A stretch of 64,000 nucleotides of DNA, taken from the NCBI GenBank assembly GCA_019779905.1, contig JABAKE010000002.1, positions 248,001 to 312,000 on the forward strand. Reading direction: 5' to 3'. This document shows, in pieces, positions 16,879 through 38,501 of this stretch. The notes beneath the pieces are model-generated. The model was not told the DNA's origin. It ran no database searches and saw only the letters and a program-made list of their open reading frames with translations. The stretch's first letter is position 1, and each line of letters opens with the position of its first letter. The stretch is from Modestobacter lapidis (lineage in GTDB: Bacteria; Actinomycetota; Actinomycetes; Mycobacteriales; Geodermatophilaceae). The position numbers and the translations under genes were made by a program.

Positions 16879-17118
16879 GCGCTTGCTCGAGGCGGCACGC
16901 GCGCCGCGATGTCCATCGCCCGCAGGGCACCGTCTGGTGATGCCTACCGGATGCCGCTCTGCCCCCGCAGCGCCGCGATGGCACCCGTCCGAGGCGTCCT
17001 TGAGCGGGCCGCTCAGGCACAGAGACGGCTTGCGCGGCTGAGCGGCACCAGTGGCCACCACCGTGGCGCCAGAGACGACTCAGGCCGCCCTCCCGATGGA
17101 AGAACGGCCCGGTCGCGA
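16879..17118. other. Intergenic: tRNA-downstream sequence left of the island
   Basis: No gene is seen. Positions about 17071-17118 are a diverged copy of 38103-38149, the hairpin region following the intact tRNA-Ala at the other island end; here the stem is GGCCG/CGGCC at 17083-17109. It is the original chromosomal sequence 3' of the tRNA before integration. Confidence 0.55.
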
Positions 17119-17163
17119 GGGTGGAGCTGAGGGGACTCGAACCCCTGACCCCCACACTGCCAG
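17119..17163. repeat. Left attachment site (attL) of the tRNA-Ala island
   Basis: A 45-bp perfect direct repeat of 38150-38194, consisting of the 3' part of tRNA-Ala(GGC) on the minus strand: T-arm, acceptor 3' strand and part of the anticodon arm. The anticodon 5' side and D-arm are absent, so it is not a functional tRNA. The sequence diverges immediately after position 17163. Confidence 0.92.
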
Positions 17164-17740: not shown

Positions 17741-19471
17741 ATGATGCTGCCGGCTGACGTCGCCGTCCGACCGCAGTGGACGGAAAAGCTGTACCCGCCG
17801 AGCCAGGGCCAGGACCACCTCGGTCTGGCCAGCGTGTCGTCGGACCAGATCCTGCCGAAGCTGTCCCCTGGGATCGTCGTGCAGACCGTCCACCCCCGCT
17901 ACTGGAGCTTCTACACATTTCTGCTCGACGAGTTCTGGCGGCGCGATCTACCCCGCACCCGCCGCGACTTCTCGCGCTTCTACCGGCCCCGTGAGGCAAT
18001 CTTCGCGGCGGGCTGCCATCTTTGCGATCGACCGGAGCACGACGAGTTCGGCCCGCTCCAAGCCATCGTCGGCTCGAACAAGGCGAGCGCGCTGGTCCAG
18101 ACCCAACCAACCGTCTACAACGCCCAGTTCAACTACATCAAGGACCCCCTCGGCGGTTATGGCCTTTACTACAGCGCTGCTATCTCCGGGATGGGCCTCA
18201 CACTGCCGGCGACGCCCGCCGCCGGGCTTCCCTACGATGCGCCAACGCCGGAAGGACGCACTATCGCGGCCGCGTTCCGGACAGCGATCGGCGGCACTCG
18301 TTACTACCGCGAGTACTTTGACGACGACCAGGCTCTGGTACCAGCCGACGTGGTCGCCGAGTACATCCGGGCGGCCTGCCTCTGCCAACTGCGCACACCG
18401 ACCGCACCGGACCGACCGCTGCTCCAAGATGTGTTCCTCCACGCCGGTGGTCCGCGCGATGCCGAGCAGCGCCGCGCCACCATGCGCATGTTTCTCGACC
18501 TCGCGGAGCAGACCGCCGGCTACGAACTGTCTGAGGATCGCTTTCGACGCCTCATCTACTTCCACTCAACGGGTGCCGGCGGAGCCGCATGGACGCCCGC
18601 AGCGCCCAACGTGCGTACCGCCCGCCGGTGGCGGCTATACCAAGCCCGCGAGTACTACGCCTACGCGCTAAACCGCATGTGGCGGTACCTTGCCGAATGG
18701 GGCATCGGCGAGGTGCGGATGAGCGGCGACGTCGTTCCGCTCTCGACGTGGTGGGAGTTCATCGACGACGCCATCGACTCCGCGGCCCTCGCCTCGGCGC
18801 TTGGGGTCGACGACCCCCATCTCAACGCCTCCTCAACCGTCGCCGACCTTGCGTACTGGGCAACCGGAGCCGGCAACGTCGGGGGCGACCTCGATGACTC
18901 GTGGGACATCGCCGCACCTGTCACGGAGCACCGCCTCTACCGATGGGCGAACGCGGCAGGTGGCGAGCCGGCTGTCATCCCGGTGGCGCTCACGCTGCTG
19001 GCCCTGGTCGCTACTCGCGTCGGATCGCGTCGTAACGAGTTGGCGTTCTCCGAGGACTGGGACATCTGTCGGGACGGCGGCGTGTCGCGCCTCGCTCTCA
19101 GTCGGTTCTTCAACCAGTGGCGCGACCGACAGCGATTCAGCCTCGGCGAGGCGGCCCGCTGGTTGTTTGGCGACTACGTCATCCGCCAGCACGAGCGTGT
19201 TGCCGTCGCCAAGCTCGCGCAGACGGGTGACACGTTCCATTTCCGTCGACAAGGCGAGTATCTGCACTTCTACGACGCTTACGCGCGGGCAGAAATGAGC
19301 AATTCGCGGTTCCAGGCACTCGCAACGACCGTGAACGAGCTCGGCTTCGTCGATAGCCTCTTCGGAGCGACGCATGCGCTCACTGACCCGGGCCGACGTC
19401 TCCTCGCCGACGGCGACCTGCCGGAACCGCACCTTGAAGCCGCGATGAACGAGCCCGGCGATGATAGCTGA
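17741..19471 (+). CDS. Unrecognised 576-aa protein paired with a PLD-motif protein
   Basis: A soluble protein I cannot place in a named family. ATG 17741 (or ATG 17744) is chosen because GAGGGG lies just upstream; GTG 17585 would add 52 residues of weakly coding sequence. The N-terminal stretch SSDQILPKLSPGIVVQT then RYWSFYTFLLDEFWRR is reminiscent of the start of DUF6361-type proteins. A cysteine/histidine cluster (AAGCHLCDRPEHDEF) might bind metal. The C-terminal half is helical and Arg/Phe-rich. It overlaps the next gene by 11 bases, so the two are co-translated. Island location and the nuclease-like partner suggest a defence role; that is inference. Confidence 0.6.
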   Translation: MMLPADVAVRPQWTEKLYPPSQGQDHLGLASVSSDQILPKLSPGIVVQTVHPRYWSFYTFLLDEFWRRDLPRTRRDFSRFYRPREAIFAAGCHLCDRPEHDEFGPLQAIVGSNKASALVQTQPTVYNAQFNYIKDPLGGYGLYYSAAISGMGLTLPATPAAGLPYDAPTPEGRTIAAAFRTAIGGTRYYREYFDDDQALVPADVVAEYIRAACLCQLRTPTAPDRPLLQDVFLHAGGPRDAEQRRATMRMFLDLAEQTAGYELSEDRFRRLIYFHSTGAGGAAWTPAAPNVRTARRWRLYQAREYYAYALNRMWRYLAEWGIGEVRMSGDVVPLSTWWEFIDDAIDSAALASALGVDDPHLNASSTVADLAYWATGAGNVGGDLDDSWDIAAPVTEHRLYRWANAAGGEPAVIPVALTLLALVATRVGSRRNELAFSEDWDICRDGGVSRLALSRFFNQWRDRQRFSLGEAARWLFGDYVIRQHERVAVAKLAQTGDTFHFRRQGEYLHFYDAYARAEMSNSRFQALATTVNELGFVDSLFGATHALTDPGRRLLADGDLPEPHLEAAMNEPGDDS

Positions 19472-22265
19472 GCGCCTCAGCGTGCCTGATGTGCTGGCCA
19501 AGCCCCGCGACCACGCCGTCATTTGCACCTTCGGCGCCCAGCTGGACTTCTTCGAAGGCCCGCTGTGGCGCCACGTCAGCCGGGCCCACAACCGGATCGT
19601 TCTCGCCGACGACGTCGTCCTCGCCGGGCAGCTCGCCGACTTAGCCTCCGGTGGCTCTCGCCTCCGTCACATCAACCGCCACTACCTGGCGACACCCATC
19701 ACCAACGTTGGCAGCGCCCACGCCAAACTTCTCCTCCTGGTCGACGCAGCAGGCGGCACACTGCTGGTCGGCAGCGGCAACCTCGGGATAGACGGATACG
19801 CGTCGCGAGGAGAGGTGTTTTACCGCTACGACACCACCGACACCAACGCCACCTACCTGCCCGAGTTCCAGGCAGCAAAAGACCTCCTCGACCTAATGGC
19901 CCTGCGCGGATATCTCGACAGCCAGGCGCGCAAGCATCTCGACGCGGTGTGGGCCGACACACCGTGGATTTGGGCACCCGCCGCCCGGCCAGCCGGTGTA
20001 CGCCACAACCTCGTCGAACCCCTCGGCGACCAGCTGATCGCCGCCGTCGCCAACGAGCGTGTCTTAGAGCTCCTCGTGCACGCCCCGTTCCACGACCAGC
20101 GCTGTGAAGCCCTCCGCCGCCTCATCGATGCGCTCCAACCCGACCACGTCAGCGTCCTCGCCCAAGCGGGCAGAACCTCCGTCGACCCGGCTGCGCTCGC
20201 CAACGTCCTCGCAGCAGCGCCAGGACTGACCGACGTGCAGCTGGCCTCCGCTCCCGAGTTCCCCGATACCTATCTGCACGCCAAGTTCATCCTCATTCGC
20301 ACCTCGACCCGATCCATCACCTTCACTGGGTCGGCGAACCTGTCCCTTGCCGCGCTGTGGCGCACTGACCGGGCCGTCGGCGAGCGGCCCGCCGGCAACA
20401 TTGAGCTCGTCACCCTCGCCCAAGGACCGCCCCAGCACTTCGAGGATCTGCTCAACGGCCTTGACCTCCGGGAAGCACCGGAGGAAGTCGCGAACCTCGA
20501 CGTCACCTACCTCGGCGACCACGAGACCGCGCCCACCGACACCCGCCCCCGGCTACTGCGTGGCACGTGGGCCGACGCGAAGCTCACCCTCGTCGCTGCC
20601 GGTGAACTGCCCGGTGGTGAACTCTCGCTCATCGTCGCCGGGACCGTCACGCCCGGTGCCGTCATTCGAGTCGGGACCACCTACACCGTCGCGCCGTCTG
20701 GCGACGCCGCGACTGCCCTCGACTTCCGCGCCGTGCCCGTATGGCTGCGCGTCGCAGCCGAGGACGGCGACGTCGATACCACGCCCGTCTACCCGTACCA
20801 CCCTGCGTCGCTTGCGACCCTCCTCACGGGGCGGCGCGATCCCGACCTGCTTCGCAAGGCCGGCAGCCTTGACCTGGAGGCATACGACAACGACCTCGCC
20901 GGCCTCCTCGACGAGCTCGACGCGACCCTCGTCATCGACCGCCACAGCCTCTGGCGTCTCGCCCGGCGCTCCCCCCCACCCGACACCGCCGGCGACGGCA
21001 AAGGTGGCCCCCACCAGGCGTGGGAGGACCTCAACTTCGACGCACTGCGCCGCCATCCCCGCCTGGCCCAGTACGAGACCGTGACCCGTCACGCCGACCG
21101 CCTCGAGGCCACGGACCTCCAGATCGTCCTCAGCGCCATCACCGACTACTTTCGCGGGTTCGGCGACCACGACAGAGCCGAGCCGGCAGCAGTCGGCCCG
21201 ACAGCCGACCAGGTCGAGGGGGCGTACGACGTCGACCTCGACGACACGACCGCCATTCTTCCCGGCGAGAACGACGACATGCCCACCGACGAAACCATTG
21301 AAGAATACGAGGCCGAAGGGGAAGAAGACGAGGAGCGAGAACGCCGCCGCCTCAAGATCGAGACCCGCAACCGGCTGGCGTGGCAGCGCTTCGCGGAGCG
21401 GTTCACGAAGGCACTTCGCGACCGGGACTTTCTCGAGGTTGTCGGCCCTAGGGTCGCGCTCACGAACGCCGTGATTCTCAATCACCTCCTCGCACTCCTC
21501 GTCGCCAAGGGCGTCGTCGGCCCCGACAAGGGCATCGGCTACCAGATCGAACTGTGGGCGTTCCTTTTCGGCGACGCCACCTCGGACGGCTACATCCAAA
21601 CACTGTCCGACGAGGACCAGTGGGCCGCCATGGAGGCGTTCGACGAGCGCGACGCCGCAGTGACAATCATCTCCGCCGTCGATCTGGCCGTGCAGCTCAC
21701 CAAACAGCATGATCTCGACGCCCTGCGCACGCGGCTCCGTAACGCCTGGCGCCGCATCCTCACGGCGCCGACCCTCGACTTCACGCCCGATGCAATGCGG
21801 CGGGCATCCCAGCCCGGCGTCCGCCCCGCCTTCAAGCTCGCGGCGTCCCTCGCCGGGTTCGCAAAGGAGTCGACAAGGCGAGAGGTCGACGGCGCCCTCG
21901 CCGCCTCCCTGGGTGTTGACCGCTCTCAGCTCATCGTCCGCAAGGAAACAGTGAAGCGTGGCCGTCAGGTTGCGACCGTCGAAGTTGTCGGCATCACCGA
22001 CCCAGCCGTTGAGCTGGCGCCCGGAGAGTTAACGGCTGCGTTCCGAGCCGCGGTCGTCGCCGACCCGGCTATCGACTACGTGCGCGTCAAGCACCTTGGG
22101 AGCGGTGTCGTTGCTACCTGGGACCGGCGGCTCCACGACTGCTGGCGCTACGACCCGGCCGGCGACGATCCTGTCGACCTGGGAGAACCAACTGACGTCG
22201 ACCCCCGCTGGCTAGCCGCCGCCGACGCCCTCGCAGGCCGAGCCGCCGAGGCGTCAGCAGCATGA
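19461..22265 (+). CDS. Large PLD-like (HKD) protein, putative defence nuclease
   Basis: A 934-residue protein with two PLD-type motifs near the N-terminus. Motif 1 is HAKLLLL with an aspartate six residues after Lys and GSGNLGIDG (about residues 87-112). Motif 2 is HAKFILI followed by GSANLSLAALW (about 273-300); the position of the usual aspartate is Arg. The two halves probably form one active site. After about residue 330 come beta-rich segments, then an acidic stretch (residues about 610-630: IEEYEAEGEEDEERERR), then a helical C-terminus. PLD nucleases such as BfiI cut DNA without metal; lipase activity is the alternative. It is the second gene of an overlapping pair. Confidence 0.68.
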   Translation: MIAERLSVPDVLAKPRDHAVICTFGAQLDFFEGPLWRHVSRAHNRIVLADDVVLAGQLADLASGGSRLRHINRHYLATPITNVGSAHAKLLLLVDAAGGTLLVGSGNLGIDGYASRGEVFYRYDTTDTNATYLPEFQAAKDLLDLMALRGYLDSQARKHLDAVWADTPWIWAPAARPAGVRHNLVEPLGDQLIAAVANERVLELLVHAPFHDQRCEALRRLIDALQPDHVSVLAQAGRTSVDPAALANVLAAAPGLTDVQLASAPEFPDTYLHAKFILIRTSTRSITFTGSANLSLAALWRTDRAVGERPAGNIELVTLAQGPPQHFEDLLNGLDLREAPEEVANLDVTYLGDHETAPTDTRPRLLRGTWADAKLTLVAAGELPGGELSLIVAGTVTPGAVIRVGTTYTVAPSGDAATALDFRAVPVWLRVAAEDGDVDTTPVYPYHPASLATLLTGRRDPDLLRKAGSLDLEAYDNDLAGLLDELDATLVIDRHSLWRLARRSPPPDTAGDGKGGPHQAWEDLNFDALRRHPRLAQYETVTRHADRLEATDLQIVLSAITDYFRGFGDHDRAEPAAVGPTADQVEGAYDVDLDDTTAILPGENDDMPTDETIEEYEAEGEEDEERERRRLKIETRNRLAWQRFAERFTKALRDRDFLEVVGPRVALTNAVILNHLLALLVAKGVVGPDKGIGYQIELWAFLFGDATSDGYIQTLSDEDQWAAMEAFDERDAAVTIISAVDLAVQLTKQHDLDALRTRLRNAWRRILTAPTLDFTPDAMRRASQPGVRPAFKLAASLAGFAKESTRREVDGALAASLGVDRSQLIVRKETVKRGRQVATVEVVGITDPAVELAPGELTAAFRAAVVADPAIDYVRVKHLGSGVVATWDRRLHDCWRYDPAGDDPVDLGEPTDVDPRWLAAADALAGRAAEASAA

Positions 22266-22655: not shown

Positions 22656-23786
22656 CTAGCTGTAAACGCCCCACCTGCGCCCACTCCTCATTTCGTACGA
22701 CGTCCCTTGATCCATTGATTTCTGTCGCCACTCTTCTGAGAGTTGCGCGTTTCGCGAGACCAGGATGAAGTGTCGGGAGGAATGGCGATTAACCTTGGAG
22801 AACATGAGCGTTTGGTCATCATAGCTGGCGGGCCACGGGGCGTCTGGCACAGGCAGGCTGATAACGTCCATGGAGTTGTCGCTGAACCGGATGGGCGCCT
22901 CCACACGAACCGCACTTTGGATTGGGTGTTCGACGATTGGCCGTGCGACCAGGGTGTTCTGAGGCACCTCGGATGCCTCCGCGCCGAAGAATACGCGCAT
23001 GAGCGCCGACATCATCAGCTGGTTGCCGGGGCGGCCCGGTCCACGGTTGCGACTGAGGATCCCTGCCTCGATCCAGAAGTGAGTCCCAGTGGAAAGCGCG
23101 ACCAATTGCGCCGGAGTTAGGCCGTATCGACTCCCGACTCCCCCCGTGGCGTCAGAGACATCGTCGTTTCGAGCCAAACCCTGTGGCGTTTTGCTAAACT
23201 GGGCCGCATACGCGTCTAGCACCCTCCCCAATGGAGTTGCCGCGCGCCACTGCCGCTCGAACCATGACTCTCCGTCTCGGAGACTCGTGTCCACGGATCT
23301 CTCCGCAGCGCTCGTGGGACGTGTGACAATCTGCAGCACTCCGACCTCGTGGCCGGTCAGTAACCCATTGCGCGAAAGGTTACCGGACCCGCAAAGGCAG
23401 CCTCTGACTCCGCGACCACGGATGGCGAACCACTTCGGATGCCACGGAACGAAGGGCACGCAGCCTGGTCGAGCCACGACCCGATCACCATCGTGAACGC
23501 GCACCTCCGAGAAAGGCATCGACTGCAGCCGATTGAGCGCCGTCGGGTCCGACCGAAGCCAATCGCAGCTGACAAGCCATCGCTTCCTCATGGCTAACCA
23601 GGCAGGACCCACCCGACTGGATCCGATTTCGGCCACTAGGGCGTCGACTCCAGAGTCCGTGACGTAGGCGACTGCCGCGTCAAAAGCTGTTGGCGAGCCG
23701 CTGGCGAGGAGCTCCATGAGCGCGTCAATGTTCCGTGAGGCGACACGGTGAGTGCCGGGCTGCGTCACAACGCGATGTATCAGCAT
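22656..23786 (-). CDS. PLD-like protein with degenerate HKD motif
   Basis: A 376-residue protein. The start chosen is ATG 23786 (MLIHRVVTQPG). A single PLD-type motif is visible: HPKWFAIRG at about residue 116, then CGSGNLSRNGLLTGHEVGV. The aspartate of HxKxxxxD is missing. This arrangement resembles the N-terminal PLD domain of restriction-type nucleases and helicase-linked PLD proteins. The remainder is unrecognised. Base composition looks less GC-rich than the chromosomal genes. It faces away from the methylase operon and toward the large PLD gene. Confidence 0.6.
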   Translation of the reverse strand: MLIHRVVTQPGTHRVASRNIDALMELLASGSPTAFDAAVAYVTDSGVDALVAEIGSSRVGPAWLAMRKRWLVSCDWLRSDPTALNRLQSMPFSEVRVHDGDRVVARPGCVPFVPWHPKWFAIRGRGVRGCLCGSGNLSRNGLLTGHEVGVLQIVTRPTSAAERSVDTSLRDGESWFERQWRAATPLGRVLDAYAAQFSKTPQGLARNDDVSDATGGVGSRYGLTPAQLVALSTGTHFWIEAGILSRNRGPGRPGNQLMMSALMRVFFGAEASEVPQNTLVARPIVEHPIQSAVRVEAPIRFSDNSMDVISLPVPDAPWPASYDDQTLMFSKVNRHSSRHFILVSRNAQLSEEWRQKSMDQGTSYEMRSGRRWGVYS

Positions 23787-24426
23787 CTTGAGCTTCCTTC
23801 CATCGCGCCAACTATGTCCGTGCGACAGTGGAGGACGGGACTCGGCACGCCGTACGACGGCACGTGGCCTACGACCGATCGCGGGAAGATCACCTCCCTG
23901 CCACCGCGTGCGTCCGCGCCTCCGTCTCGAGAGCTTTCGGCGCGGCGGCTGGCCACAGGGCTCGTGGCTTGCAGCGAGGCCGTAGCGTCTCGCGAGGAAG
24001 TCATCCGAAGCGAAGCAGCCCCTTCGCACGGCGGGATCCAGGAGCAGGCACTGCGCCCACCACCATCGATCTCGACCCCGTCCGCCGAACGCCATCCGTC
24101 AGTTGCGGGGCGTACGGGCTCGCTCCCACTACCGTGGGCTGCCGATGCAACATGGACCGCCACCATCCGCAGGGCGATTCGTAGCCGGCCCCTGACTGTT
24201 TGCGGACGGTCCCATCCCGGCGTCACCAAGGACACCGCTCACCCGAGAGATGGCTACGGATGGGCATGCCGGCTCGCAAGCTCGGGCCGCTCGGGGGCTG
24301 CTATATCAGCCAGCCAGTTGGGTCCGTCCGCCGCAGTGGTGCGGCGCCGCCGGCGAGGATCCGCCGTCATGACCGCAGTGTCGGTGGGCAATGTTGAGAT
24401 GAGCGCATGGCACAAGGAGTAGCTCG
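23787..24426. other. Divergent intergenic region, probable promoters
   Basis: About 640 bases separate the leftward PLD-like gene from the methylase operon. The open frames on both strands show no family pattern. An AAGGAG lies eight bases before the methylase GTG. No operator was recognised. Confidence 0.4.
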
Positions 24427-27144
24427 GTGAAGCTCAACCTCAAGGCGATCGAGGAACGCGTCGCACCACTGGGCGGACGCACGTCCTACGACCGCAACTT
24501 CATCTTCGAACTGCTTCTCGCGTACGGACGCTCCCCGAGCAACGTCACCCGGCTCCGCAACGGCTCGCTGAACGTAGCCGACGACAAGATCCACGAGGTC
24601 GCGCAGAAAAACGTTGTCTACTTTCGCGAGACCGTCGGCGACCCACTAGCCGCGATCGAGAAGCTCAGGACGTCACCGACGGTTGTTCGCTATAACACCC
24701 GCTTCGTCATCGTCACCAACTACAATGAGCTTCTCGCGGTCGACACCAAGACCAGCGAAACCTTGCTTATCCCGATCCATGACATCGACAAACACTTCAC
24801 ATTCTTTCTACCTTGGGCTGGAATGGAGAAAGCCCAGTACGTCGCGGAGACCCATGCTGACGTCCGAGCTGCCGAGCGGATGGGCAGACTCTTCGACGAA
24901 CTGGTCGGCGCGAACCCTGAGTTGCTCAATGCTCCGAATGGGCGCCACGTCCTCAACATCTTCTTCACGAGGCTGCTGTTTTGCTTCTTCGCCGAAGATA
25001 CTGGCATCTTTTCCCAAAGTCAGTTCACCAACGCCGTCGGCTCCTACACCCAAGCCGACGGAGCCGACGTCGCAGGCTTCCTTACCGACCTCTTTGCCGC
25101 GCTCGACACCGAATACGCTGCCGACAAGCCCGTGCACCTCGCAGGGTTCCCCTATGTCAACGGCAGGCTCTTCACCTCCGCGCCCGACCAGGTCGTCCCG
25201 GCGTTCACGAGGAAGGCCAGGGACCTGTTGATCGAGTCTGGGACGCTGATCTGGCGAGAGATCAACCCCGACATTTTCGGGTCGATGTTCCAAGCGATCG
25301 TCACCCCCAGTCTGCGCTCAGACCTCGGCCAACACTACACCTCCGTTCCGAACATCCTAAAAGCCATTGAGCCCCTCTTCCTAAATGGACTGAGAGAGGA
25401 CTTCGACCGGGCCTACGACTCGACCAGGAGGCTTGAAGGTCTCCTAAGACGCATCAGTACGATTAAGGTCTTCGACCCAGCCTGCGGGTCCGGGAACTTC
25501 CTCGTTATTGCATACAAGGAACTGCGGCGCCTGGAACACGCGATTCTCGAACGCCTCGCCGAACTGCACCCTAAGCATCAGGTCCTGTTCGCCTCGTCTC
25601 AGATCAACGTTGAGAACTTTTTCGGTCTCGAGATCGACGACTTCGCGGTTGAGGTCGCCATCCTTTCCCTATGGATAGCCAAGCACCAGATGAACCGCGA
25701 GTTCCTGGAGAAGTTCCGCGTCGACCTACCTTTGATTCCCCTGAGGGAGACCGGACGGGTTCGCCAAGGCAACGCTACCCGCGTTGACTGGCAGAAGATA
25801 TGTCCCAACGATGGCGACGAAGAGATCTACCTGATCGGCAACCCGCCGTACGCAGGCGCCAAGACGCAGACTAAGGAGCAGAAGGCCGACTACGATTTCG
25901 TCTTCGAAGGTCGCCCGTACTCGAAGAACCTCGACTACATCGCGCTTTGGTTCGTCAAAGGGGCCGACTACATCGAAGGCACTCGCGCGGAGCTGGCGTT
26001 CGTCACCACCAACTCGGTCGCGCAGGGCGAGCATGTCGGATTGATGTTTCCGATGATCTTCGCCAAAGGCGTCGAAATCGGCTTCGCTTACACATCGTTC
26101 AAGTGGGAGAATAACGCCAAGCGCAACGCAGGTGTGACCGTCGCCGTGATCGGGTTGCGGAACGCCAATGCTAGTCCGAAGTACTTATACACGGACGATC
26201 TCCAGATCACGGCAACCAACATCAATGGGTATCTTGCCGACGGTGCGGACGTCGTGATCGGGCGGCGCAGGAAGCCACTTGGGGCTCCCCGTCCTGACAT
26301 GGTGTTCGGCTCCATGCCGCGCGACGGCGGCGGCCTCATCCTCTCGCCTGAGGATCGAGCTCAGATGATCGCCGAGGACCCGCGAAGCGAGCAGTTCATC
26401 AAGCGGTACATGGGATCATCCGAAGCGATCAACGACGGTGAACGCTATTGCCTGTGGATAAGCGACAGCTCCGTTTCGACTGCAGCGTCGATCACCGCGA
26501 TCGCGTCCCGACTAGTACGCGTTGCAAGGGAGCGAAGCGAAAGCAGAGCCGGTAGCACGGCTTCCTTCGCCGCTCAACCTCACAGATTCGTGCAGATCAG
26601 CTACAAGCCAACGAATTCGATAATTGTCCCGAGAGTCTCGTCGGCGCGGCGTGACTACATACCAATCGGATACCTCGACTCGAGCACGGTGATATCGGAC
26701 GCCGCGTTCGGCGTTTATGACGCTGAACCATGGCTGTTCTCTCTGTTGACCTCGCGCATGCATATGGTCTGGACACGAGCGGTGGGGGGTCAACTGAAGA
26801 CCGACTATCGCTACTCGAACACAATCGTCTACAACAACTTCCCGGTGCCTCCACTAAGTGATTCAGTGCTGGAGCAACTCACGATGGCTGCTTTGCGGGT
26901 GCTTGATGTACGTGAGTATCACGGCGAGAAGACGCTGGCTGAGTTGTATGATCCGAGTCTAATGCCCGCTGACCTGCGCGCCTCTCACGCTGAGATCGAT
27001 GCCTTGGTCGATTCACTCTACTCTGGGGGTGGGTATGAGGCGGATGAGCAGCGTTTGTCCGACCTGTTCGCTATGTATGAGGTGATGACTGCCGATGAGG
27101 CCGCGAAGGACCCGACGGAGAGGGCGAGGGCAGCCCGCAAGTGA
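24427..27144 (+). CDS. N6-adenine DNA methyltransferase, MmeI-like, without visible nuclease motif
   Basis: A 905-residue class I methyltransferase. Residues 90-110 (TRFVIVTNYNELLAVDTKT) and 180-195 (TRLLFCFFAEDTGIF) match the N-terminal and helical linker regions of MmeI-type enzymes. LGQHYTSVPNI at about 300 leads to the SAM-binding motif FDPACGSGNFL (349-359) and catalytic GNPPYAG (471-477), indicating adenine methylation. A target-recognition region should follow at about 600-800. No PD-(D/E)xK nuclease is evident at the N-terminus, unlike single-chain type IIL enzymes. GTG 24427 has AAGGAG upstream. The stop overlaps the helicase start, so methylation and the downstream activities are probably parts of one system. 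Confidence 0.85.
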   Translation: MKLNLKAIEERVAPLGGRTSYDRNFIFELLLAYGRSPSNVTRLRNGSLNVADDKIHEVAQKNVVYFRETVGDPLAAIEKLRTSPTVVRYNTRFVIVTNYNELLAVDTKTSETLLIPIHDIDKHFTFFLPWAGMEKAQYVAETHADVRAAERMGRLFDELVGANPELLNAPNGRHVLNIFFTRLLFCFFAEDTGIFSQSQFTNAVGSYTQADGADVAGFLTDLFAALDTEYAADKPVHLAGFPYVNGRLFTSAPDQVVPAFTRKARDLLIESGTLIWREINPDIFGSMFQAIVTPSLRSDLGQHYTSVPNILKAIEPLFLNGLREDFDRAYDSTRRLEGLLRRISTIKVFDPACGSGNFLVIAYKELRRLEHAILERLAELHPKHQVLFASSQINVENFFGLEIDDFAVEVAILSLWIAKHQMNREFLEKFRVDLPLIPLRETGRVRQGNATRVDWQKICPNDGDEEIYLIGNPPYAGAKTQTKEQKADYDFVFEGRPYSKNLDYIALWFVKGADYIEGTRAELAFVTTNSVAQGEHVGLMFPMIFAKGVEIGFAYTSFKWENNAKRNAGVTVAVIGLRNANASPKYLYTDDLQITATNINGYLADGADVVIGRRRKPLGAPRPDMVFGSMPRDGGGLILSPEDRAQMIAEDPRSEQFIKRYMGSSEAINDGERYCLWISDSSVSTAASITAIASRLVRVARERSESRAGSTASFAAQPHRFVQISYKPTNSIIVPRVSSARRDYIPIGYLDSSTVISDAAFGVYDAEPWLFSLLTSRMHMVWTRAVGGQLKTDYRYSNTIVYNNFPVPPLSDSVLEQLTMAALRVLDVREYHGEKTLAELYDPSLMPADLRASHAEIDALVDSLYSGGGYEADEQRLSDLFAMYEVMTADEAAKDPTERARAARK

Positions 27145-29126
27145 ATGCGACCAAGAAGCCGATCAACGTTGTCGACGTGACGTACGCACGCACGGGCGAG
27201 TCCGTGAACACCGACGCGATGGGTATGCGCGAGATGCAGCAGCGTGTCTTCGCCAAGCGCGAAGCGCAGCATCTGTTGGTCAAGGCCCCGCCGGCCTCGG
27301 GCAAGTCGCGGGCGCTGATGTTTGTGGCGCTCGACAAGCTCTACAACCAGGGTCGTAAGAAGGTAGTTGTGGCTGTGCCGGAGCGGTCGATCGGCGGGTC
27401 GTTTGCCTCAACGAGCCTCACCCAGTCCGGGTTCTTCGCGGACTGGAAGGTCAAGCCTGAGCTCAACCTGTGCGACCCCGGCTCCTCGCAGGGCAAGGTC
27501 GGCGCCTTCATCGAGTTCCTGAACGGCCCCGAGGGGGTCCTGATCTGCACGCACGCCACGCTGCGTTTCGCCGTCGAGAAGCTGACCCCAGACGCGTTCA
27601 ACGGCACCGTGCTCGCGATCGACGAGTTTCACCATGTTTCTGCCGACATCGAAGCCAGCCGCCTCGGCGCGCTCCTGCGTGATGTCATGAACGGCTCGGA
27701 CGTGCACATCATCGCGATGACGGGCTCATACTTCCGCGGCGACTCGGTTCCTGTGCTGTCGGCCGAGGACGAGGCGCGGTTCACGCCGGTCACCTTCAAC
27801 TACTACGACCAGCTCAATGGTTACGAGTACCTGAACTCGCTCGGCATCGGCCACCACTTCTACCAAGGCCGCTACACCGAGGCGATCGGCGAGGTCTTCG
27901 ACCTGGACAAGAAGACGATCCTCCACATCCCGAACGTGAACTCGGGAGAGTCCACGAAGGACAAGATTGAGGAGGTCGGGTTCATCATCGACTCGATCGG
28001 CCACGTCGAGTCCACCGACCCTGACACTGGGATCATCAGCATCCGCAGGGCCGACACCGGCGAGCTCCTGCGCCTGGCCGACCTCGTAGATGACACGGAC
28101 CAGAAGAAGCGCGCCGACACCCTGCACCACCTCTCCACTGTCGCATCGAAGGACCGGGACGCCGTAGACGTGATTCTGGCTCTCGGGATGGCCAAGGAGG
28201 GTTTCGACTGGCCTTTTGCCGAGCACGCCCTCACTGTCGGCTATCGGGCATCGCTGACTGAGGTCATCCAGATCATTGGTCGCGTCACCCGTGACTCGCC
28301 CGGCAAGGAGCACGCTCAGTTCACCAACCTAATTGCCGAGCCGGACGCATCGCAGAGCGAGGTGAAGGTGTCGGTGAACAACATGCTGAAGGCCATCACG
28401 GCGTCGCTGCTGATGGAACAGGTGCTGGCCCAGAACTTCGAGTTCAAGACTAAGCGCAGCGGTGACGACGCTCCGACCCCGCCGAGCGTCATCAAAATTA
28501 GAGGTTTCAAGGAGCCTAGCTCCGAGCGGGTCAAGCAGATCGTCGAGACGGACCTCAATGACCTGAAGGCGACCATCCTGCAGGACGACACGTTCGCAAA
28601 GGCCGCTGCTGGCTCAGTGGACCCCGAGACGACCAACAAGATTTTGATCCCGAAGATCATCCGGGAGCGCTATCCCGACTTGGACGATTCGCAGGTCGAG
28701 GAACTGCGCCAGCAGGTGGTCGTGGACTCTGTCATCAAGAACGGCGAAGTCCGTGAAGTAGGCGACAAGCGGTTTATCAAGATGTCGGAAAAGTTCGTCA
28801 ACATCGACGACATCAACATCAACCTAATCGACTCCGTCAACCCATTCCAGCGCGCCTTCGAGGTTATCTCCAAGTCCGTCACGCCTTCCGTGCTGCGGAT
28901 CATCTCGGATGCGATTACTTCGACAAGGGTTGTGATAACCGAGGAAGAGGCGCTGACTACCTGGCCGAAGCTTCAGCAGTGGGCCAAGGTCAACGGGCGC
29001 AAACCGAACTTGCGCTCCGACGATCCGACCGAGAAGCGGTACGCCGAGGTAGTGCTCTTCCTGCAGAAGAAAAAGCAGGAGCGCGATGCCGCGCAGCGCA
29101 ACGCCGAGGCTCGGGACGACGTATGA
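27141..29126 (+). CDS. DExH-box superfamily 2 helicase
   Basis: A 661-residue helicase starting at GTG 27141, overlapping the methylase stop as GTGA. Motif I is APPASGKS (residues 49-56), motif II DEFHH (161-165), motif III MTGS (193-196), a motif V-like AKEGFDWP (351-358) and motif VI QIIGRVTRD (377-385). The C-terminal part ends in a helicase-associated module (WPKLQQWAKVNGRKPNLRS, then EKRYAEVVLFLQ). A similar module is at the N-terminus of the next protein. No nuclease domain is seen. It probably translocates on DNA for the methylase/GIY-YIG system. Confidence 0.85.
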   Translation: MNATKKPINVVDVTYARTGESVNTDAMGMREMQQRVFAKREAQHLLVKAPPASGKSRALMFVALDKLYNQGRKKVVVAVPERSIGGSFASTSLTQSGFFADWKVKPELNLCDPGSSQGKVGAFIEFLNGPEGVLICTHATLRFAVEKLTPDAFNGTVLAIDEFHHVSADIEASRLGALLRDVMNGSDVHIIAMTGSYFRGDSVPVLSAEDEARFTPVTFNYYDQLNGYEYLNSLGIGHHFYQGRYTEAIGEVFDLDKKTILHIPNVNSGESTKDKIEEVGFIIDSIGHVESTDPDTGIISIRRADTGELLRLADLVDDTDQKKRADTLHHLSTVASKDRDAVDVILALGMAKEGFDWPFAEHALTVGYRASLTEVIQIIGRVTRDSPGKEHAQFTNLIAEPDASQSEVKVSVNNMLKAITASLLMEQVLAQNFEFKTKRSGDDAPTPPSVIKIRGFKEPSSERVKQIVETDLNDLKATILQDDTFAKAAAGSVDPETTNKILIPKIIRERYPDLDDSQVEELRQQVVVDSVIKNGEVREVGDKRFIKMSEKFVNIDDININLIDSVNPFQRAFEVISKSVTPSVLRIISDAITSTRVVITEEEALTTWPKLQQWAKVNGRKPNLRSDDPTEKRYAEVVLFLQKKKQERDAAQRNAEARDDV

Positions 29127-30316
29127 GCGCCAGCGACGAAGCGGGGTCGGCAGACGCCGTCGTCCCAGCCAGCATCGATGACATCCTCGACTCTGACTTC
29201 AATGGCCTGCTCGACGGACCTGATCGGGCCATGAAGGTCACCTCAGCCGATCGCCTGAAGCGGGGATTCCTGGAGATTGTTGAATTCCGACGCGTACACG
29301 AGCGGCTCCCAAGCTCTACAACGCGTGAAATCGCCGAACGCAAGCTCGGCGCCCGGCTCGACGGCATCCTCGCCAGCGAGGAGAAGATCGCTGCGCTGAA
29401 GCCACTCGACGAGTTTGGTCTCCTGGAGACGCCCGAGGCGCCAGCGTCGCTTGACGACCTGCTCGGTGGCAACGACCTCGACCTGCTCGATGACGAGTCC
29501 GGACTCTTGGACGTCTCAGACCTGCCGGTGCGCCGTCAGACTTACGACAGCGGGAACGCGGCGCGCCGCGAGAAGGCACAGGACTTCGAGCGGTTCGAGC
29601 CGCTCTTCAAGCAGAAGCACGCCGAGCTGCGTGACGGTGTGAGCAAGCTGCTGTCCTACCCAGGCATGACCCACATCCTCCCTGGGGCCTTCTTCGTCCT
29701 CAACGGAGTCATGCTGTTCATCGCCGAGGTTGGTGAGACCGAATACAAGAAGACGACCGTGAGACAAAACAAGCGTGAACGGCTCCGCTGCATCTTCGAG
29801 AACGGCACCGAGTCTTCGATGTATCGGCAGTCCCTAGGCATCAGGCTGAGCGACGAGGACGGCCAGATCGTCGTCAAGTCCGAACCGCCCGAGATCCTCA
29901 GCGATGACCAGGTGAGCGGCTACATCTACGTGCTTCGGTCCCTCAGCGCGGACCCGCAGGTTGCCGGCATCAAGGACCTCTACAAGATCGGCTTCACACG
30001 CGGGTCGGTCGAACTCCGAATCAAGGACGCGGAGAAATCGCCGACGTATCTGATGGCGCGAGTGGAGGTGGTGGCCAGCTACCGCACCTACAACCTCAAG
30101 GCGTCTGCCCTGGAGAACTTGCTGCACCGAGTCTTCGCAGAAGTCCGCCTCGACATAAGCCAGGTGGATCGCTGGGGCCGGGACTACGACGCGTCGGAGT
30201 GGTTTGTGGTTCCGAGGGCCGTTATCGACCAGGCCATCGAACTGATCCAGTCAGGAGCGATCGTCCGCTACGTCTATGACGCAACCGCGCAGGGGCTCGT
30301 CGAGCGCGGCCAGTAG
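29123..30316 (+). CDS. GIY-YIG nuclease-family protein (Mug113/T5orf172 type)
   Basis: A 397-residue protein, ATG overlapping the helicase stop as ATGA. The acidic N-terminus (IDDILDSDFNGLLDG) is followed at about 48-85 by a module like the helicase C-terminus (FRRVHERLPSS, then ERKLGARLDGI). The GIY-YIG core is GYIYVLRS (266-273), YKIGFTR (287-293), an Arg at about 299 and the E-x-x-x-H pair in ALENLLHRVF (331-335). This is the Mug113-like branch, often attached to mobile or defence genes. As the only visible nuclease in the operon it is the candidate effector. Confidence 0.83.
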   Translation: MSASDEAGSADAVVPASIDDILDSDFNGLLDGPDRAMKVTSADRLKRGFLEIVEFRRVHERLPSSTTREIAERKLGARLDGILASEEKIAALKPLDEFGLLETPEAPASLDDLLGGNDLDLLDDESGLLDVSDLPVRRQTYDSGNAARREKAQDFERFEPLFKQKHAELRDGVSKLLSYPGMTHILPGAFFVLNGVMLFIAEVGETEYKKTTVRQNKRERLRCIFENGTESSMYRQSLGIRLSDEDGQIVVKSEPPEILSDDQVSGYIYVLRSLSADPQVAGIKDLYKIGFTRGSVELRIKDAEKSPTYLMARVEVVASYRTYNLKASALENLLHRVFAEVRLDISQVDRWGRDYDASEWFVVPRAVIDQAIELIQSGAIVRYVYDATAQGLVERGQ

Positions 30317-30521: not shown

Positions 30522-31757
30522 TCACGCCCGGCTATGAACCAGGTCCTCGCTCTTGTCGAGGATTTGGTCCATGAGGCCGATCTCCTGGTCGAGCTCCTCA
30601 CCTCGGAGTACCAGCAGCCGCTCCACGTCGAGCGTCGCCACGGCGAGCTGTGCCGCACAGAGCTGGACGAAGTCGTCGTACTGCTCCTGCTGCGCGGGCG
30701 ACAGCTCGTCCCACTCGGTCGGTGCCTGCAGTCGTCGGGACCACCGCTCGCGGGCGTGTGCACCGTGGACGGCGACGTACTCGAGGATCCGTGCGGCGCG
30801 ACCCACGAGGTCGATGAACGCCTCGACGCCTCGCGCCTGCGCATCGAGCTGCGCTTCGGCCTCGTCGAGCTTCACTGCGAGCTCCTGCCGCTGCTGCCGG
30901 TTCCGGCGAGCGACCCACACGAGACCGCTCACAGCTAGGACGACTGCGGGACCGGCGACGAGCCCCGTGAGAAGCGCGGCGCCACCGGCCATGCCCGCTC
31001 CGCCGGCCGCGAGGGTGCCGCCTCCCAGCAGGGCGAGCGCGGCATTGGACGCGGCGACGCCGGACAGCCCGGAGATGGCGACACCCGTCGAGGCCGTGCC
31101 CCAGGTGACGGCGGCGGTGAAGGCCGCATAGGCAGTAGCCGCGCCCGCCGCGCTCCCCACCGCTACGCCTGCTGCCGCCCCGGACAGCGTCTGGGCGACC
31201 CCGTAGCTCGCGAAACGCAGCCGGAACGCGGCTGTGGCAGCGGCGTCGGCGCCTTCTTCCGGAACGCCCTCTTCCAGGCTCTCCGTCGGCGGTGGAGGGG
31301 CGCCTGAGATGGCATCGGCGGCGCGCACGAATGGGAGGAAGAACTCGTCCCGAGCCAGGTCGTGCGCCTCGTTGAAGGCATCCACCGTGCTCGACAGGCG
31401 GTCGGTCCGTTCTTCGACGATGCGCTGCACGCGCACCAGTCGGTTCCGCAGGGACTCGTCCGTCGCGCCCGCCGATCCTCCGCCAGCCGCGGCGAGGTTC
31501 TCGGTGCGCCGCGCGGCGAGCGTCACGAGCTCGCCGGGCAAGAGATCGAGCGCCTGGTTGAGGCCAACGAGTCGGTCGGCGCTGGGGCTCGAGAGGCCGC
31601 TCTCGATGCGAGAGATCGCGACTCCGGCGCCGGCTTCTCCGTATCCCGCACGGACGCCCAGTTCGCGCTGAGTCAACCTCGGGGACTGCGCCTCGCGCAG
31701 CTCACGGACCACCAGGCCGAGCGCCTCGGGCGAGTAGTTCACTCGGAGCGAGCCCAT
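30522..31757 (-). CDS. XRE-family HTH protein with glycine-rich membrane segment and coiled-coil tail
   Basis: A 411-residue protein. Residues about 12-70 form an XRE/Cro helix-turn-helix (LTQRELGVRAGYGEAG, ISRIESGLSSPSADRL). An acidic linker leads to about 100 residues of Ala/Gly-rich hydrophobic sequence (for example GAAAGVAVGSAAGAATAYAA and GGGTLAAGGAGMAGGAALL) with glycine-zipper spacing. A basic boundary (VARRNRQQRQ) and a long helical tail follow. A DNA-binding head on a membrane-inserting body is unusual. It could be a membrane-tethered regulator or an effector whose expression is self-controlled. Its start lies inside the end of the upstream 62-aa gene, so the two are co-transcribed. 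Confidence 0.7.
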   Translation of the reverse strand: MGSLRVNYSPEALGLVVRELREAQSPRLTQRELGVRAGYGEAGAGVAISRIESGLSSPSADRLVGLNQALDLLPGELVTLAARRTENLAAAGGGSAGATDESLRNRLVRVQRIVEERTDRLSSTVDAFNEAHDLARDEFFLPFVRAADAISGAPPPPTESLEEGVPEEGADAAATAAFRLRFASYGVAQTLSGAAAGVAVGSAAGAATAYAAFTAAVTWGTASTGVAISGLSGVAASNAALALLGGGTLAAGGAGMAGGAALLTGLVAGPAVVLAVSGLVWVARRNRQQRQELAVKLDEAEAQLDAQARGVEAFIDLVGRAARILEYVAVHGAHARERWSRRLQAPTEWDELSPAQQEQYDDFVQLCAAQLAVATLDVERLLVLRGEELDQEIGLMDQILDKSEDLVHSRA

Positions 31758-36230: not shown

Positions 36231-36262
36231 GGCGCATCCTTCCGTAGCTGTGTGTGACGTTT

Positions 36263-36278
36263 CTGTCATACTGTCATA
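36263..36278. promoter_or_regulatory. Tandem octamer operator for the RHH-YfbU gene
   Basis: CTGTCATA occurs twice head to tail without spacer, 33 bases upstream of the start codon. Ribbon-helix-helix proteins typically bind such tandem repeats cooperatively, so autoregulation is likely. Confidence 0.5.
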
Positions 36279-36280
36279 CA

Positions 36281-36609: not shown

Positions 36610-36852
36610 ATGGATGGTCTGCAGCCGTTTCGAGACGCCATGGCCGCCGATTGGCTCCTCCTCACGCCGGGGGAGGCGGCGGAGGTCCTCCGCATCGGCC
36701 GCACGACGGTGTACGCGCTCATGAAGAGCGGGGCGCTGCGTCCCGTACACATCGGCCGCAGCTGCCGGATCTCTCAGGCAGAGCTGGACCGCTACGTCCG
36801 CCAGCTAGAGGCTTCTCCGTCCCGTCCACAGCCTTCGCCGGACGCCACATGA
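36610..36852 (+). CDS. xis: Excisionase-like small HTH protein
   Basis: An 80-residue protein with a MerR-type/HTH_17 helix-turn-helix (LLTPGEAAEVLRIGRTTVYA, then SGALRPVHIGRSCRISQAEL). Proteins of this type next to tyrosine integrases act as recombination directionality factors. It is 74 bases before the integrase on the same strand, near the right att site. The start codon follows GGGAGAGG. Confidence 0.8.
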   Translation: MDGLQPFRDAMAADWLLLTPGEAAEVLRIGRTTVYALMKSGALRPVHIGRSCRISQAELDRYVRQLEASPSRPQPSPDAT

Positions 36853-36926: not shown

Positions 36927-38501
36927 ATGGCGGGACGGGCGTCGAACGGCGAGTCGACGATCTACAAGGGCGCCGACGGGCGCTGGCACGGCTACGTCTC
37001 CGTCGGGTTCACGCTCGCCGGCAAGCTCGACCGCCGGCACGTCAGCAGCAAGAGCCGGGGCGTGGTGGTCACGAAGGTCCGCGAGCTCGAGCGCAGGCGC
37101 GACTCCGGGATGATCACAGAGACGTCTACTCCCACCGTCGCCGAGTGGCTCGAGCACTGGCTGACCACCATCGCGCCCCGCCGGGTGCGCCAGCGGACGC
37201 TGGAGAGCTACGAATCCGCCGTCCGCAAGCACCTGATCCCTGGCATCGGCCGGCACCGCCTCGACCGGCTGCGCCCCGAGCACCTCGACCAGCTCTACAC
37301 CGCGCTCCTCGACGCCGGCTACTCCCCCGCCACCGCGCTGCGCCATCACCGCATCCTGTCCCGGGCCCTCACCGTCGCCGTCCAGCGCGGGCACGTCCCC
37401 CGCAACGTGGCCGGCCTGGTCGATCCGCCCGCCCAGAAACAGAGCGACATCGCCACCGCCCTCGACCTCGGCGAGGCCCGCGCCGTCCTGGGAGCCGCCA
37501 CGACGGTCCGCAACTCAGCCCGCTGGACCGTCGCGCTAGCCCTCGGCCTGCGCCAGTCCGAGGCGCTTGCGCTGCAGTGGAAGGACATCGACCCGCTGGC
37601 CGGCACCCTCACCGTGCGGCGCAGCATCCACCGGGTCCGCGGCGGCGGGCTGGTCTACGAGGAGCCCAAGACCCGCCGCAGCCAGCGCACGTTGGCGCTG
37701 CCGCTGCCTCTGCTCGATGCACTCAGGGAGCACAAGGCCGCCCAGCTCGGCGAGCGGATCCTGGCCGGCTCCGAGTGGCACGACGAGGACCTGGTCTTCG
37801 CGCAGCCCAACGGCCGGCCGATCGACAAGAAGACCGACCACGACGACTGGACCCGGCTGCTGCAGAAAGCCGGCGTCCGGCACGTCCGGCTGCACGACGG
37901 CCGGCACACCGCCGCCACCCTGCTGCTCAGCGAGAGCGTGCACCCGCGGGTGGTCATGGAGCTGCTCGGCCACAGCCAGATGCGCACCACGATGGACATC
38001 TACAGCCACGTGATGCCGGCCCTCGCCAGAGAGGCCGCCGACCGGATGAGCGCCCTGCTGCTGCCAGGTAAGGGTGGGCAAACTGCAACCACAACTGCAA
38101 CCAGAGACGACTCAGGCCGCTCCCCGGAAGGGGAACGGCCTGGTCATCGGGGTGGAGCTGAGGGGACTCGAACCCCTGACCCCCACACTGCCAGTGTGGT
38201 GCGCTACCAGCTGCGCCACAGCCCCTTGCCGACCCGGTCTGGTGTGTCCGGGCCGTGCAGAACGATACATGGCCGGACGGCGACCGCTGCGGGGGCCTCC
38301 CTTCCGCGCGTCGCCGTCCGGCACCGGCCCCTGCGCTTCTCACCACCGCCGGCGGCCCCGTGCTCCCGGAGCTCCGCCCGGCCCGCTGACGGCGCAGCGG
38401 GCGGGCCGGGTGACCGGGCTCAGCTCGGGGGCGTCGGCGTCAGTTGGGCGACCCGCACGTGGTTGCCGAACGGGTCGCGGAAGCCGAAGTCGATGCCGTA
38501 G
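36927..38501 (+). CDS. int: Tyrosine site-specific integrase; C-terminus read through the att site
   Basis: A phage-type integrase: N-terminal AP2-like/SAM-like arm-binding region, core-binding domain (AEWLEHWLTTIAPRRVRQRT) and catalytic domain with Arg in LALGLRQSEAL, HDGRHTAAT (H-x-x-R type box) and the Tyr nucleophile in TTMDIYSHV. The true domain ends near residue 380. In the integrated state no stop occurs before 38501: the frame crosses arm sites, the tRNA hairpin and the whole tRNA-Ala gene. In the excised circle the frame would continue from the core into the left-end sequence and stop at TGA (17171-17173), giving 425 rather than 524 residues. It catalyses integration and excision of the island. 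Confidence 0.9.
   Translation: MAGRASNGESTIYKGADGRWHGYVSVGFTLAGKLDRRHVSSKSRGVVVTKVRELERRRDSGMITETSTPTVAEWLEHWLTTIAPRRVRQRTLESYESAVRKHLIPGIGRHRLDRLRPEHLDQLYTALLDAGYSPATALRHHRILSRALTVAVQRGHVPRNVAGLVDPPAQKQSDIATALDLGEARAVLGAATTVRNSARWTVALALGLRQSEALALQWKDIDPLAGTLTVRRSIHRVRGGGLVYEEPKTRRSQRTLALPLPLLDALREHKAAQLGERILAGSEWHDEDLVFAQPNGRPIDKKTDHDDWTRLLQKAGVRHVRLHDGRHTAATLLLSESVHPRVVMELLGHSQMRTTMDIYSHVMPALAREAADRMSALLLPGKGGQTATTTATRDDSGRSPEGERPGHRGGAEGTRTPDPHTASVVRYQLRHSPLPTRSGVSGPCRTIHGRTATAAGASLPRVAVRHRPLRFSPPPAAPCSRSSARPADGAAGGPGDRAQLGGVGVSWATRTWLPNGSRKPKSMP
38081..38103. repeat. Integrase arm-type sites, right
   Basis: AACTGCAACCA occurs at 38081-38091 and 38093-38103, inside the 3' end of the integrase frame. 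The motif matches the pair at 17267-17288 at the opposite island end. Confidence 0.68.
38113..38142 (-). terminator. Hairpin downstream of tRNA-Ala
   Basis: CAGGCCG at 38113-38119 pairs with CGGCCTG at 38136-38142, one mismatch, then TCCCC/GGGGA around a GGAA loop. It lies just 3' of the tRNA and is island-derived. A diverged chromosomal version is at 17081-17112. Confidence 0.6.
38150..38194. repeat. Right attachment site (attR), overlapping tRNA-Ala
   Basis: Perfect 45-bp copy of 17119-17163. The island supplies this tRNA 3' segment, restoring an intact tRNA at the right junction. Confidence 0.92.
38153..38225 (-). tRNA. tRNA-Ala (anticodon GGC)
   Basis: A 73-base cloverleaf. The acceptor GGGGCTG pairs with CAGCTCC and includes G3-U70, the alanine identity pair. 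The D-arm is GCGC/GCGC, the anticodon stem CCACA/TGTGG with loop CTGGCAG (anticodon GGC), and the T-arm has loop TTCGAGT. The discriminator is A; CCA is not encoded. It is the integration target of the island. Confidence 0.95.

What the first reader, a model, noticed from the sequence alone, without database searches (positions are those of the whole stretch)
24427..30316. Three-gene methylase / DExH helicase / GIY-YIG operon as a split restriction-modification-like system
The genes overlap by four bases at each junction. The methylase resembles MmeI but shows no nuclease motif; the only visible nuclease is a separate GIY-YIG protein. Helicase C-terminus and GIY-YIG N-terminus share a similar short helical module. 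This is not a standard type I, II or III layout, nor BREX or DISARM as I know them.
Basis: partly seen in the sequence, partly recalled or inferred. Interest (0 to 1): 0.8.

Follow-up and report, generated by a model that had tools for sequence, protein, structure and literature searches.

The report
Three-gene DNA-methylation defence operon
This is one more copy of a known three-gene set (a DNA methylase, a helicase motor and a separate DNA-cutting enzyme) that most likely marks the cell's own DNA and destroys unmarked invading DNA; the motor and the cutter turn out to share a small matching module, which hints at how they are coupled.

Summary
Three genes at 24427-30316 overlap by 4 bp at each junction: an MmeI-like adenine methylase without the nuclease motif, a DExH helicase, and a GIY-YIG (T5orf172/MUG113) nuclease. 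In 80 relatives the nuclease is present in 79 and the methylase in 71; every absence lies within 2.5 kb of a contig end. What I add: (1) 0 of 64 triad methylases keep the aligned D-x9-ExK, against 7 of 7 MmeI relatives without the helicase; (2) helicase C-terminus and nuclease N-terminus share a homologous module, seen in no other ORF of a 5655-ORF set; (3) 25 of 70 loci have 0.5-4.9 kb between methylase and helicase, with co-oriented genes such as RhuM, Fic, PrrC/RloC-like and YhcG, companions known from restriction operons; (4) here the operon sits in a ~21 kb tRNA-Ala island. Most likely mechanism: ATP-dependent restriction resembling a 'type ISP' enzyme split into three proteins. No cutting or defence is shown for this copy, and the B. 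subtilis version showed none.

The parts
24427..27144 (+). MmeI-like N6-adenine DNA methyltransferase (DnmA/YeeA type), nuclease motif lost
24436..24906 (+). MmeI_N domain of the methylase (the nuclease domain in MmeI); D-x9-ExK absent
25405..26190 (+). MmeI_Mtase domain, with DPACGSGNF and NPPY motifs
   Evidence: motifs read from the translation
26242..26856 (+). Target recognition domain, the most diverged of the five regions compared
27141..29126 (+). DExH (DEFH) superfamily-2 helicase/ATPase, YeeB type
28935..29081 (+). Shared module at the helicase C-terminus (residues 599-647)
29123..30316 (+). GIY-YIG (T5orf172/MUG113) nuclease, YeeC type
29243..29401 (+). Shared module at the nuclease N-terminus (residues 41-93)
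29918..30247 (+). GIY-YIG domain; G266, Y269, K288, G290, R299, N324, E331, H335 identical in 78 of 78 sequences (77 distinct)
17069..17163 (+). Left attachment repeat of the island; last 45 bp identical to the tRNA-Ala 3' part
38101..38194 (+). Right attachment repeat, reaching into tRNA-Ala
38151..38225 (-). tRNA-Ala (GGC), integration target
36927..38501 (+). Tyrosine integrase of the island (the ORF as listed runs across the tRNA; the true end is uncertain)
36610..36852 (+). Small HTH_17 protein beside the integrase, excisionase-like by position only

Best explanation
[quoted passage not shown] SHOWN (by sequence): the gene order, the domains, the lost nuclease motif in the methylase, intact helicase and GIY-YIG motifs, the shared helicase/nuclease module, and residence in a tRNA-Ala island. 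INFERRED: the methylase binds a short asymmetric site through its own recognition domain and methylates adenine on one strand. An unmethylated site makes it load the helicase, which moves along DNA using ATP. The GIY-YIG protein rides with or is recruited to the helicase, the shared module being a common docking part, and cuts when two complexes meet from head-to-head unmethylated sites. That two-site rule would spare newly replicated host DNA, as argued in PMC3874165 for MmeI and as described there for type ISP enzymes. In effect it is a type ISP machine split into three proteins, with a GIY-YIG blade in place of an Mrr-like one.
For: Strict synteny and the same order in 6 of 6 plasmid loci inspected, one of them a 7.7 kb Pediococcus plasmid whose only three listed genes are the triad (PLSDB gene tables are incomplete). 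Motif lost in 64 of 64 triad methylases, present in 7 of 7 MmeI relatives without the helicase. Eleven helicase motif residues identical in 81 of 81 sequences and eight GIY-YIG-domain residues in 78 of 78 (one duplicate in each set). Module cross-detection with no other ORF below E = 1. The recognition domain is the most diverged region, mean pair identity 0.55 against 0.72-0.80 elsewhere, as expected of changing target sites. Inserted genes are kinds reported in R-M operons (PMC3710099 passages). Published: B. subtilis DnmA methylates GACGAG, whose complement has no adenine, so one strand only; deleting the V. crassostreae dnmA or yeeB homologues raised sensitivity to some phages (as reported in PMC9973331).
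Against: In B. subtilis, deleting yeeB or yeeC did not change growth or plating of the three phages tested, transformation was nearly the same without dnmA, and the DnmA site is not depleted in phage genomes; the authors call it a non-functional relic. In V. crassostreae other phage clades were unaffected. Nothing was measured for this copy. Translocation, the two-site rule and any complex of the three proteins are untested. The direct hhalign probability for the module is low (18%, P = 2.8e-4), though windows and cross-detection are much stronger; 42 of 93 nuclease and 59 of 92 helicase ORFs were not found by the other protein's module at E below 1.
Confidence: 0.62

Rival explanations
1. A restriction relic: only the methylase works, as an orphan epigenetic regulator; helicase and nuclease are passengers.
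For: Concluded for B. subtilis in PMC9973331; PMC7261158 suggests an inactive, inefficient or noncanonical system.
Against: Here and in relatives the tested helicase and nuclease motif residues are invariant; the helicase is the best conserved of the three (60 sequences, mean column identity 73%, nuclease 45%; pairwise to the window, methylase 37-77% against helicase 59-90%); the genes travel together on plasmids and here on an island. B. subtilis YeeB and YeeC are reported to lack C-terminal stretches, so that copy may be unusual.
Confidence: 0.17
2. A BREX- or Pgl-like system: methylation marks self, but defence does not come from direct cutting at or between sites; the nuclease nicks or signals.
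For: PglX-type methylases share the fold (weak PADLOC and NCBIfam matches). Phage genomes do not avoid the DnmA site (PMC9973331).
Against: No PglZ- or BrxC-like match among the 7 neighbouring proteins scanned (for the methylase PADLOC showed the best 25 of 49 families); a GIY-YIG protein was present in 79 of 80 loci.
Confidence: 0.12
3. A type IIG/IIL enzyme in the ordinary sense, with helicase and nuclease as unrelated neighbours (how PADLOC labels the methylase).
For: Near-full-length PADLOC REase_MTase_IIG match, E 1.4e-282; MmeI structure 5hr4 is the only PDB match at E 0.001 or less.
Against: No aligned D-x9-ExK in any of 64 triad methylases; conserved synteny.
Confidence: 0.03

Closest known systems
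DnmA-YeeB-YeeC (B. subtilis yeeABC; V. crassostreae homologues)
   Same: Same three protein types, same order, methylase without nuclease motif, third protein with T5orf172
   Different: This copy is in an actinobacterial tRNA-Ala island. A direct alignment to the B. subtilis proteins was not made. B. subtilis YeeB/YeeC are reported to miss C-terminal stretches
MmeI family (type IIL/IIG)
   Same: Methylase domains from end to end; 5hr4 E 3.5e-169 over residues 90-889
   Different: MmeI carries its nuclease in the same chain; here the motif is gone and a helicase and nuclease gene follow
Type ISP (LlaGI, LlaBIII)
   Same: Same set of functions: nuclease, translocase, gamma-methylase, recognition domain; asymmetric site (PMC3874165 passages)
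   Different: Type ISP is one polypeptide with an Mrr-like nuclease; here three proteins and GIY-YIG. Only weak helicase similarity to a long PADLOC IIG model (PDLC03597, E 1.5e-4)
CglI / NgoAVII
   Same: Separate methylase, nuclease and SF2 ATPase genes, ATP-dependent cutting (PMC4267653 passages)
Type I and type III R-M
   Same: ATP-dependent logic (inferred here); embedded companion genes of kinds reported in R-M operons
   Different: No HsdS or Mod/Res; nuclease not fused to the helicase

Membership tests
DnmA-YeeB-YeeC cluster | MmeI-like methylase without PD-ExK motif | tested here: met
DnmA-YeeB-YeeC cluster | SF2 helicase then T5orf172/GIY-YIG gene directly downstream, same strand | tested here: met
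   published positions +1 and +2
DnmA-YeeB-YeeC cluster | Sequence homology to the B. subtilis YeeB and YeeC proteins themselves | not tested
   B. subtilis proteins were not at hand as sequences; the set does hold a Bacillaceae relative (L117 Niallia)
DnmA-YeeB-YeeC cluster | m6A at a non-palindromic site | not testable with these tools
   needs methylome data
Type IIL (MmeI) | Nuclease and methylase in one chain | tested here: not met
   motif absent
Type ISP | Single polypeptide with Mrr-like nuclease, translocase, methylase, TRD | tested here: not met
   three separate genes, GIY-YIG nuclease
Type ISP | Translocation and two head-to-head sites | not testable with these tools
   needs purified proteins
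[not shown]
   none of these domains on the three proteins
Type I R-M | HsdS subunit and nuclease fused to helicase (HsdR) | tested here: not met
   on the triad and 4 neighbours
Type III R-M | Mod plus Res with nuclease fused to helicase | tested here: not met
   ResIII match below its cut-off
BREX / DISARM | PglZ and BrxC, or DrmA and DrmB, next to the methylase | tested here: not met
   7 proteins (triad and 4 neighbours) scanned, none matched these; weak DrmC-type PLD matches on two neighbours; the rest of the window was not scanned for them

The most novel reading that the evidence does not exclude
The triad is a distinct class of ATP-dependent restriction machine: a split 'type ISP' with an MmeI-type sensor, a translocating helicase and a GIY-YIG cutter. 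Helicase and nuclease each carry one copy of an unnamed docking module, so they either pair with each other or compete for the same spot on the methylase, which would switch the complex between marking and cutting. The gap between methylase and helicase is an insertion hotspot for guard toxins that fire when restriction is blocked, as PrrC does for a type Ic system.
Probability: 0.35. Interest if true: 0.68.

Novelty: new member of a known kind. Interest (0 to 1): 0.4.

Why it matters
The triad is spread over many bacterial phyla and at least one archaeal assembly, though patchily: a full-length helicase was found in 2 of 393 other genomes of the class. Its mechanism is unsettled and its best-studied copy is judged non-functional. 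Copies with intact motifs such as this one, a 7.7 kb plasmid with only the triad listed, and a specific shared module give direct handles for a test. It also shows that a defence-annotation library labels as a one-gene type IIG enzyme a methylase without the nuclease motif.

Tried and rejected
Hidden nuclease in the methylase: rejected; 15 of 64 triad methylases have some D-x(8-11)-[E/Q]xK string in their first 130 residues but none has D, E/Q and K at the columns of the MmeI-family motif. Pfam family for the shared module: none evident; apart from the GIY-YIG families the widest match among 60 nucleases was PMBR (11 of 60, best E 0.0082), and among 60 helicases, apart from helicase and P-loop AAA families, SWC7 (11 of 60, best E 0.003); where these lie was not shown, and only the first 25 of 44 and of 38 families were listed. 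Solved structure of helicase or nuclease: none by sequence. Nuclease relative in phage records: none; methylase relatives in 11 phage records, all under 60% identity. The nuclease was found only in the window's own genome among 59 genomes of relatives, so in 0 of 22 others of the genus.

A first count of loci with genes between methylase and helicase (26 loci, 46 ORFs) was corrected on recount: in L076 and L055 the methylase frame is broken and two of the 'inserted' ORFs are methylase pieces; the corrected count is 25 of 70 loci and 44 ORFs.

Structure prediction of nuclease and helicase was planned and is off for all sessions, so the module's fold and any interface remain unknown. The module was searched for only in ORFs of fetched loci, not in whole genomes.

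Papers: passages only of PMC9973331, PMC7261158, PMC4267653, PMC3874165, PMC3710099, PMC12458937, PMC12707154, PMC9258068, PMC12409345, PMC9519451; the main text of PMC12421847 was searched for four terms with no hit. Not held: Morgan et al. 2009 and Makarova et al. 2011, so what I say of them comes from papers citing them; the Vibrio study (Piel et al. 2021 as cited) was seen only as cited. That I found no description of the shared module or the insertion hotspot in print rests only on the searches and the passages.
Full report
WHAT IS THERE. Three genes on the + strand, 24427-27144, 27141-29126 and 29123-30316, overlap by 4 bases twice. The first is an MmeI-type adenine methylase from end to end (Pfam MmeI_N, hel, Mtase, TRD, C), matched by the MmeI structure 5hr4 over residues 90-889. 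The second is a superfamily-2 ATPase with a DEFH box. The third ends in a GIY-YIG domain of the T5orf172/MUG113 type.

IS IT A UNIT? From the genome collection the 80 loci with the most similar helicases (59-90% identity, best segment) were kept out of 587 confirmed relatives, itself a capped list, so the sample is biased to close relatives. They come from Actinomycetota, Saccharibacteria, Planctomycetes, Bacteroidota, Pseudomonadota, Bacillota, Campylobacterota, an archaeal assembly and others. The nuclease gene lies by the helicase in 79 of 80; in the other one (L069) the contig ends 379 bases after the helicase. The methylase is in 71 of 80, upstream of the helicase in 70 and downstream in one (L079); in the nine without it at most 2406 bases lie upstream before the contig ends. 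The helicase-nuclease gap is within -50 to +30 bases in 77 of 79. The methylase-helicase gap is within 30 bases in 45 of 70 (44 by ORF ends, plus L076 after recount). In 21 actinobacterial loci the 4-base overlap recurs in 20 (first junction) and 18 (second). Six plasmid loci that I picked from 264 matching records, at 51.5-87% helicase identity, all keep the order; in one of them (L. salivarius, L119) the methylase is annotated in several pieces and was left as it is. In the window's own class the system is rare: full-length helicase in 2 of 393 other genomes.

LOST NUCLEASE. In 296 genomes of the phylum there were eight MmeI_N matches over the family's cut-off besides the window's; seven weaker matches were not pursued. 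All eight neighbourhoods were fetched. None gave a helicase or nuclease match, though in one (L108) the gene is cut by the contig end so that its downstream side cannot be seen, and in L105 only 1.4 kb follows the gene. The other seven gave a methylase match, and all seven carry D-x9-ExK (six intact genes, one broken in two frames, L112). In contrast 0 of 64 triad methylases (window included) have D, E/Q and K at the aligned positions (the alignment set against it six intact genes). So the nuclease function appears to have left the methylase where a separate GIY-YIG protein is present.

MOTIFS. Across 81 helicases (80 distinct) K55 of Walker A, DEFH, TGS, Q377, R381 and R384 are identical in all; across 78 nucleases (77 distinct) G266, Y269, K288, G290, R299, N324, E331 and H335 are identical in all. 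The helicase is remarkably conserved throughout (mean column identity 73% over 60 sequences; nuclease 45%).

SHARED MODULE. Profile comparison of helicase residues 585-661 with nuclease residues 20-110 gives P = 2.8e-4, with an hhalign probability of only 18%; four control pairings gave P 0.67-0.98. Against 59 sliding 90-residue windows from all three proteins, the helicase module's best matches outside its own protein are two windows of the nuclease N-terminus (P = 7.4e-7 and 1.1e-6), the next best being 0.004; the nuclease module's best matches outside its own protein are two helicase C-terminal windows (1.6e-6 and 9.5e-5), the next best being 0.04. A model from helicase modules alone finds 51 of 93 nuclease ORFs at E below 1 and no other ORF in a set of 5655; the reverse finds 33 of 92 helicase ORFs and no other, the first other ORF coming at E = 1.0. 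The ORF set is from 129 fetched loci, some held more than once, not from whole genomes. The core reads roughly I-x2-[FW]-x5-[GN]-R-x-P, then an E-[RK] about ten residues on. No Pfam family evidently covers it. A common docking part is my inference.

SPECIFICITY. Among 19 actinobacterial methylases (171 pairs) mean identity is 0.79 (N-terminal), 0.79 (spacer), 0.72 (methylase), 0.55 (target recognition), 0.80 (C-terminal), as expected if target sites diversify.

INSERTED GENES. In 25 of 70 loci 0.5-4.9 kb separate methylase and helicase (correcting 26). In 24 of these 25, 44 ORFs of 90 codons or more were picked, some perhaps spurious; all point the same way although both strands were searched. 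Ten chosen by me are SLFN AlbA_2, RhuM, Bro-N, Fic, an AbiJ-like protein, YhcG/DUF1016, a PrrC/RloC-like ATPase, an OLD/GajA-like ATPase, HTH-IrrE and a KAP NTPase. PMC3710099 (passages) reports PrrC/RloC proteins in R-M operons beside RhuM or Fic/Doc, and PrrC as held inactive by a type Ic system until that is blocked. The window's copy has no insert.

MOBILITY. GC in 1 kb bins is 58-66% over the operon (24-31 kb), 64-72% over the rest of the island and 68-76% outside (10-17 and 38-42 kb). The island is bounded by a 95-bp repeat at 17069-17163 and the 3' part of tRNA-Ala (38101-38194; 88% identical, 45 bp identical), with a tyrosine integrase at 36927. The 22 other genomes of the genus lack the nuclease, while the tRNA end has a long match (over 120 bp) in 19 of those 22 in the truncated list, with extra ~94-bp copies in several (for example G667, G668, G673), which points to a recurrent integration site.

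WHAT IT IS. This is the DnmA-YeeB-YeeC cluster. PMC7261158 showed that B. subtilis YeeA/DnmA methylates GACGAG, notes that it lacks the endonuclease motif and has the neighbours yeeB and yeeC, and reports the earlier 'Type I-like' suggestion. PMC9973331 showed conserved synteny (helicase at +1, T5orf172 protein at +2), found no phage phenotype in B. subtilis, and cites a Vibrio crassostreae study where deleting dnmA or yeeB raised sensitivity to some phage subclades and not to others. So the kind is known; this is a new member.

HOW IT LIKELY WORKS. One-strand methylation of an asymmetric site leaves one daughter duplex unmarked after replication. PMC3874165 (passages) argues that MmeI-type enzymes therefore probably rely on pairs of head-to-head sites, and describes type ISP enzymes as ATP-driven translocases that need two such sites. 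The triad holds the same functions (sensor, methylase, motor, blade), split over three proteins. CglI (PMC4267653 passages) shows that a separate nuclease and SF2 ATPase can work as one ATP-dependent enzyme. I therefore take the triad to be an ATP-dependent R-M machine of type ISP-like logic. The loading, translocation, collision and docking steps are inferred, not shown.

Noticed in passing
window 17069-38194: A roughly 21 kb integrative element in tRNA-Ala with a 45-bp identical attachment core, tyrosine integrase and HTH_17 protein; the tRNA end appears to be a recurrent integration site in the genus.
   Followed up: partly
window 17585-22265: Two overlapping + strand genes (628 and 934 aa) at the left end of the island: the second has a PLD-like match and a partial match to PADLOC ZacB, with matches in 5 of 295 other class genomes, all partial. 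Possibly another defence pair.
   Followed up: partly
window 22656-24095 (-): 479-aa protein with no Pfam family and only a marginal PADLOC DrmC match (E 0.047), upstream of the operon on the other strand.
   Followed up: no
window 30522-31757 (-): 411-aa protein with a weak N-terminal HTH match and a match to the PADLOC candidate family PDC-M09A, convergent with the operon.
   Followed up: no
window 35460-36281 (-): YfbU-domain protein with an N-terminal ribbon-helix-helix-like region.
   Followed up: no
L118 (Pediococcus pP76, 7677 bp): A small plasmid whose only listed genes are the triad, a natural minimal test case (gene table incomplete).
   Followed up: no
L033, L048, L063, L064, L065, L072 and others, between methylase and helicase: Insertion hotspot for co-oriented accessory defence or toxin-like genes.
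   Followed up: partly
L055, L076, L112, L119: Methylase genes of this superfamily that are broken or annotated in pieces; in L055, L076 and L119 beside a helicase and nuclease gene.
   Followed up: no
literature, PMC9258068 (passages): Genes named yeeA, yeeB and yeeC are described beside blaOXA-23 in Acinetobacter transposons Tn2006/Tn2009; whether they derive from this triad was not examined.
   Followed up: no
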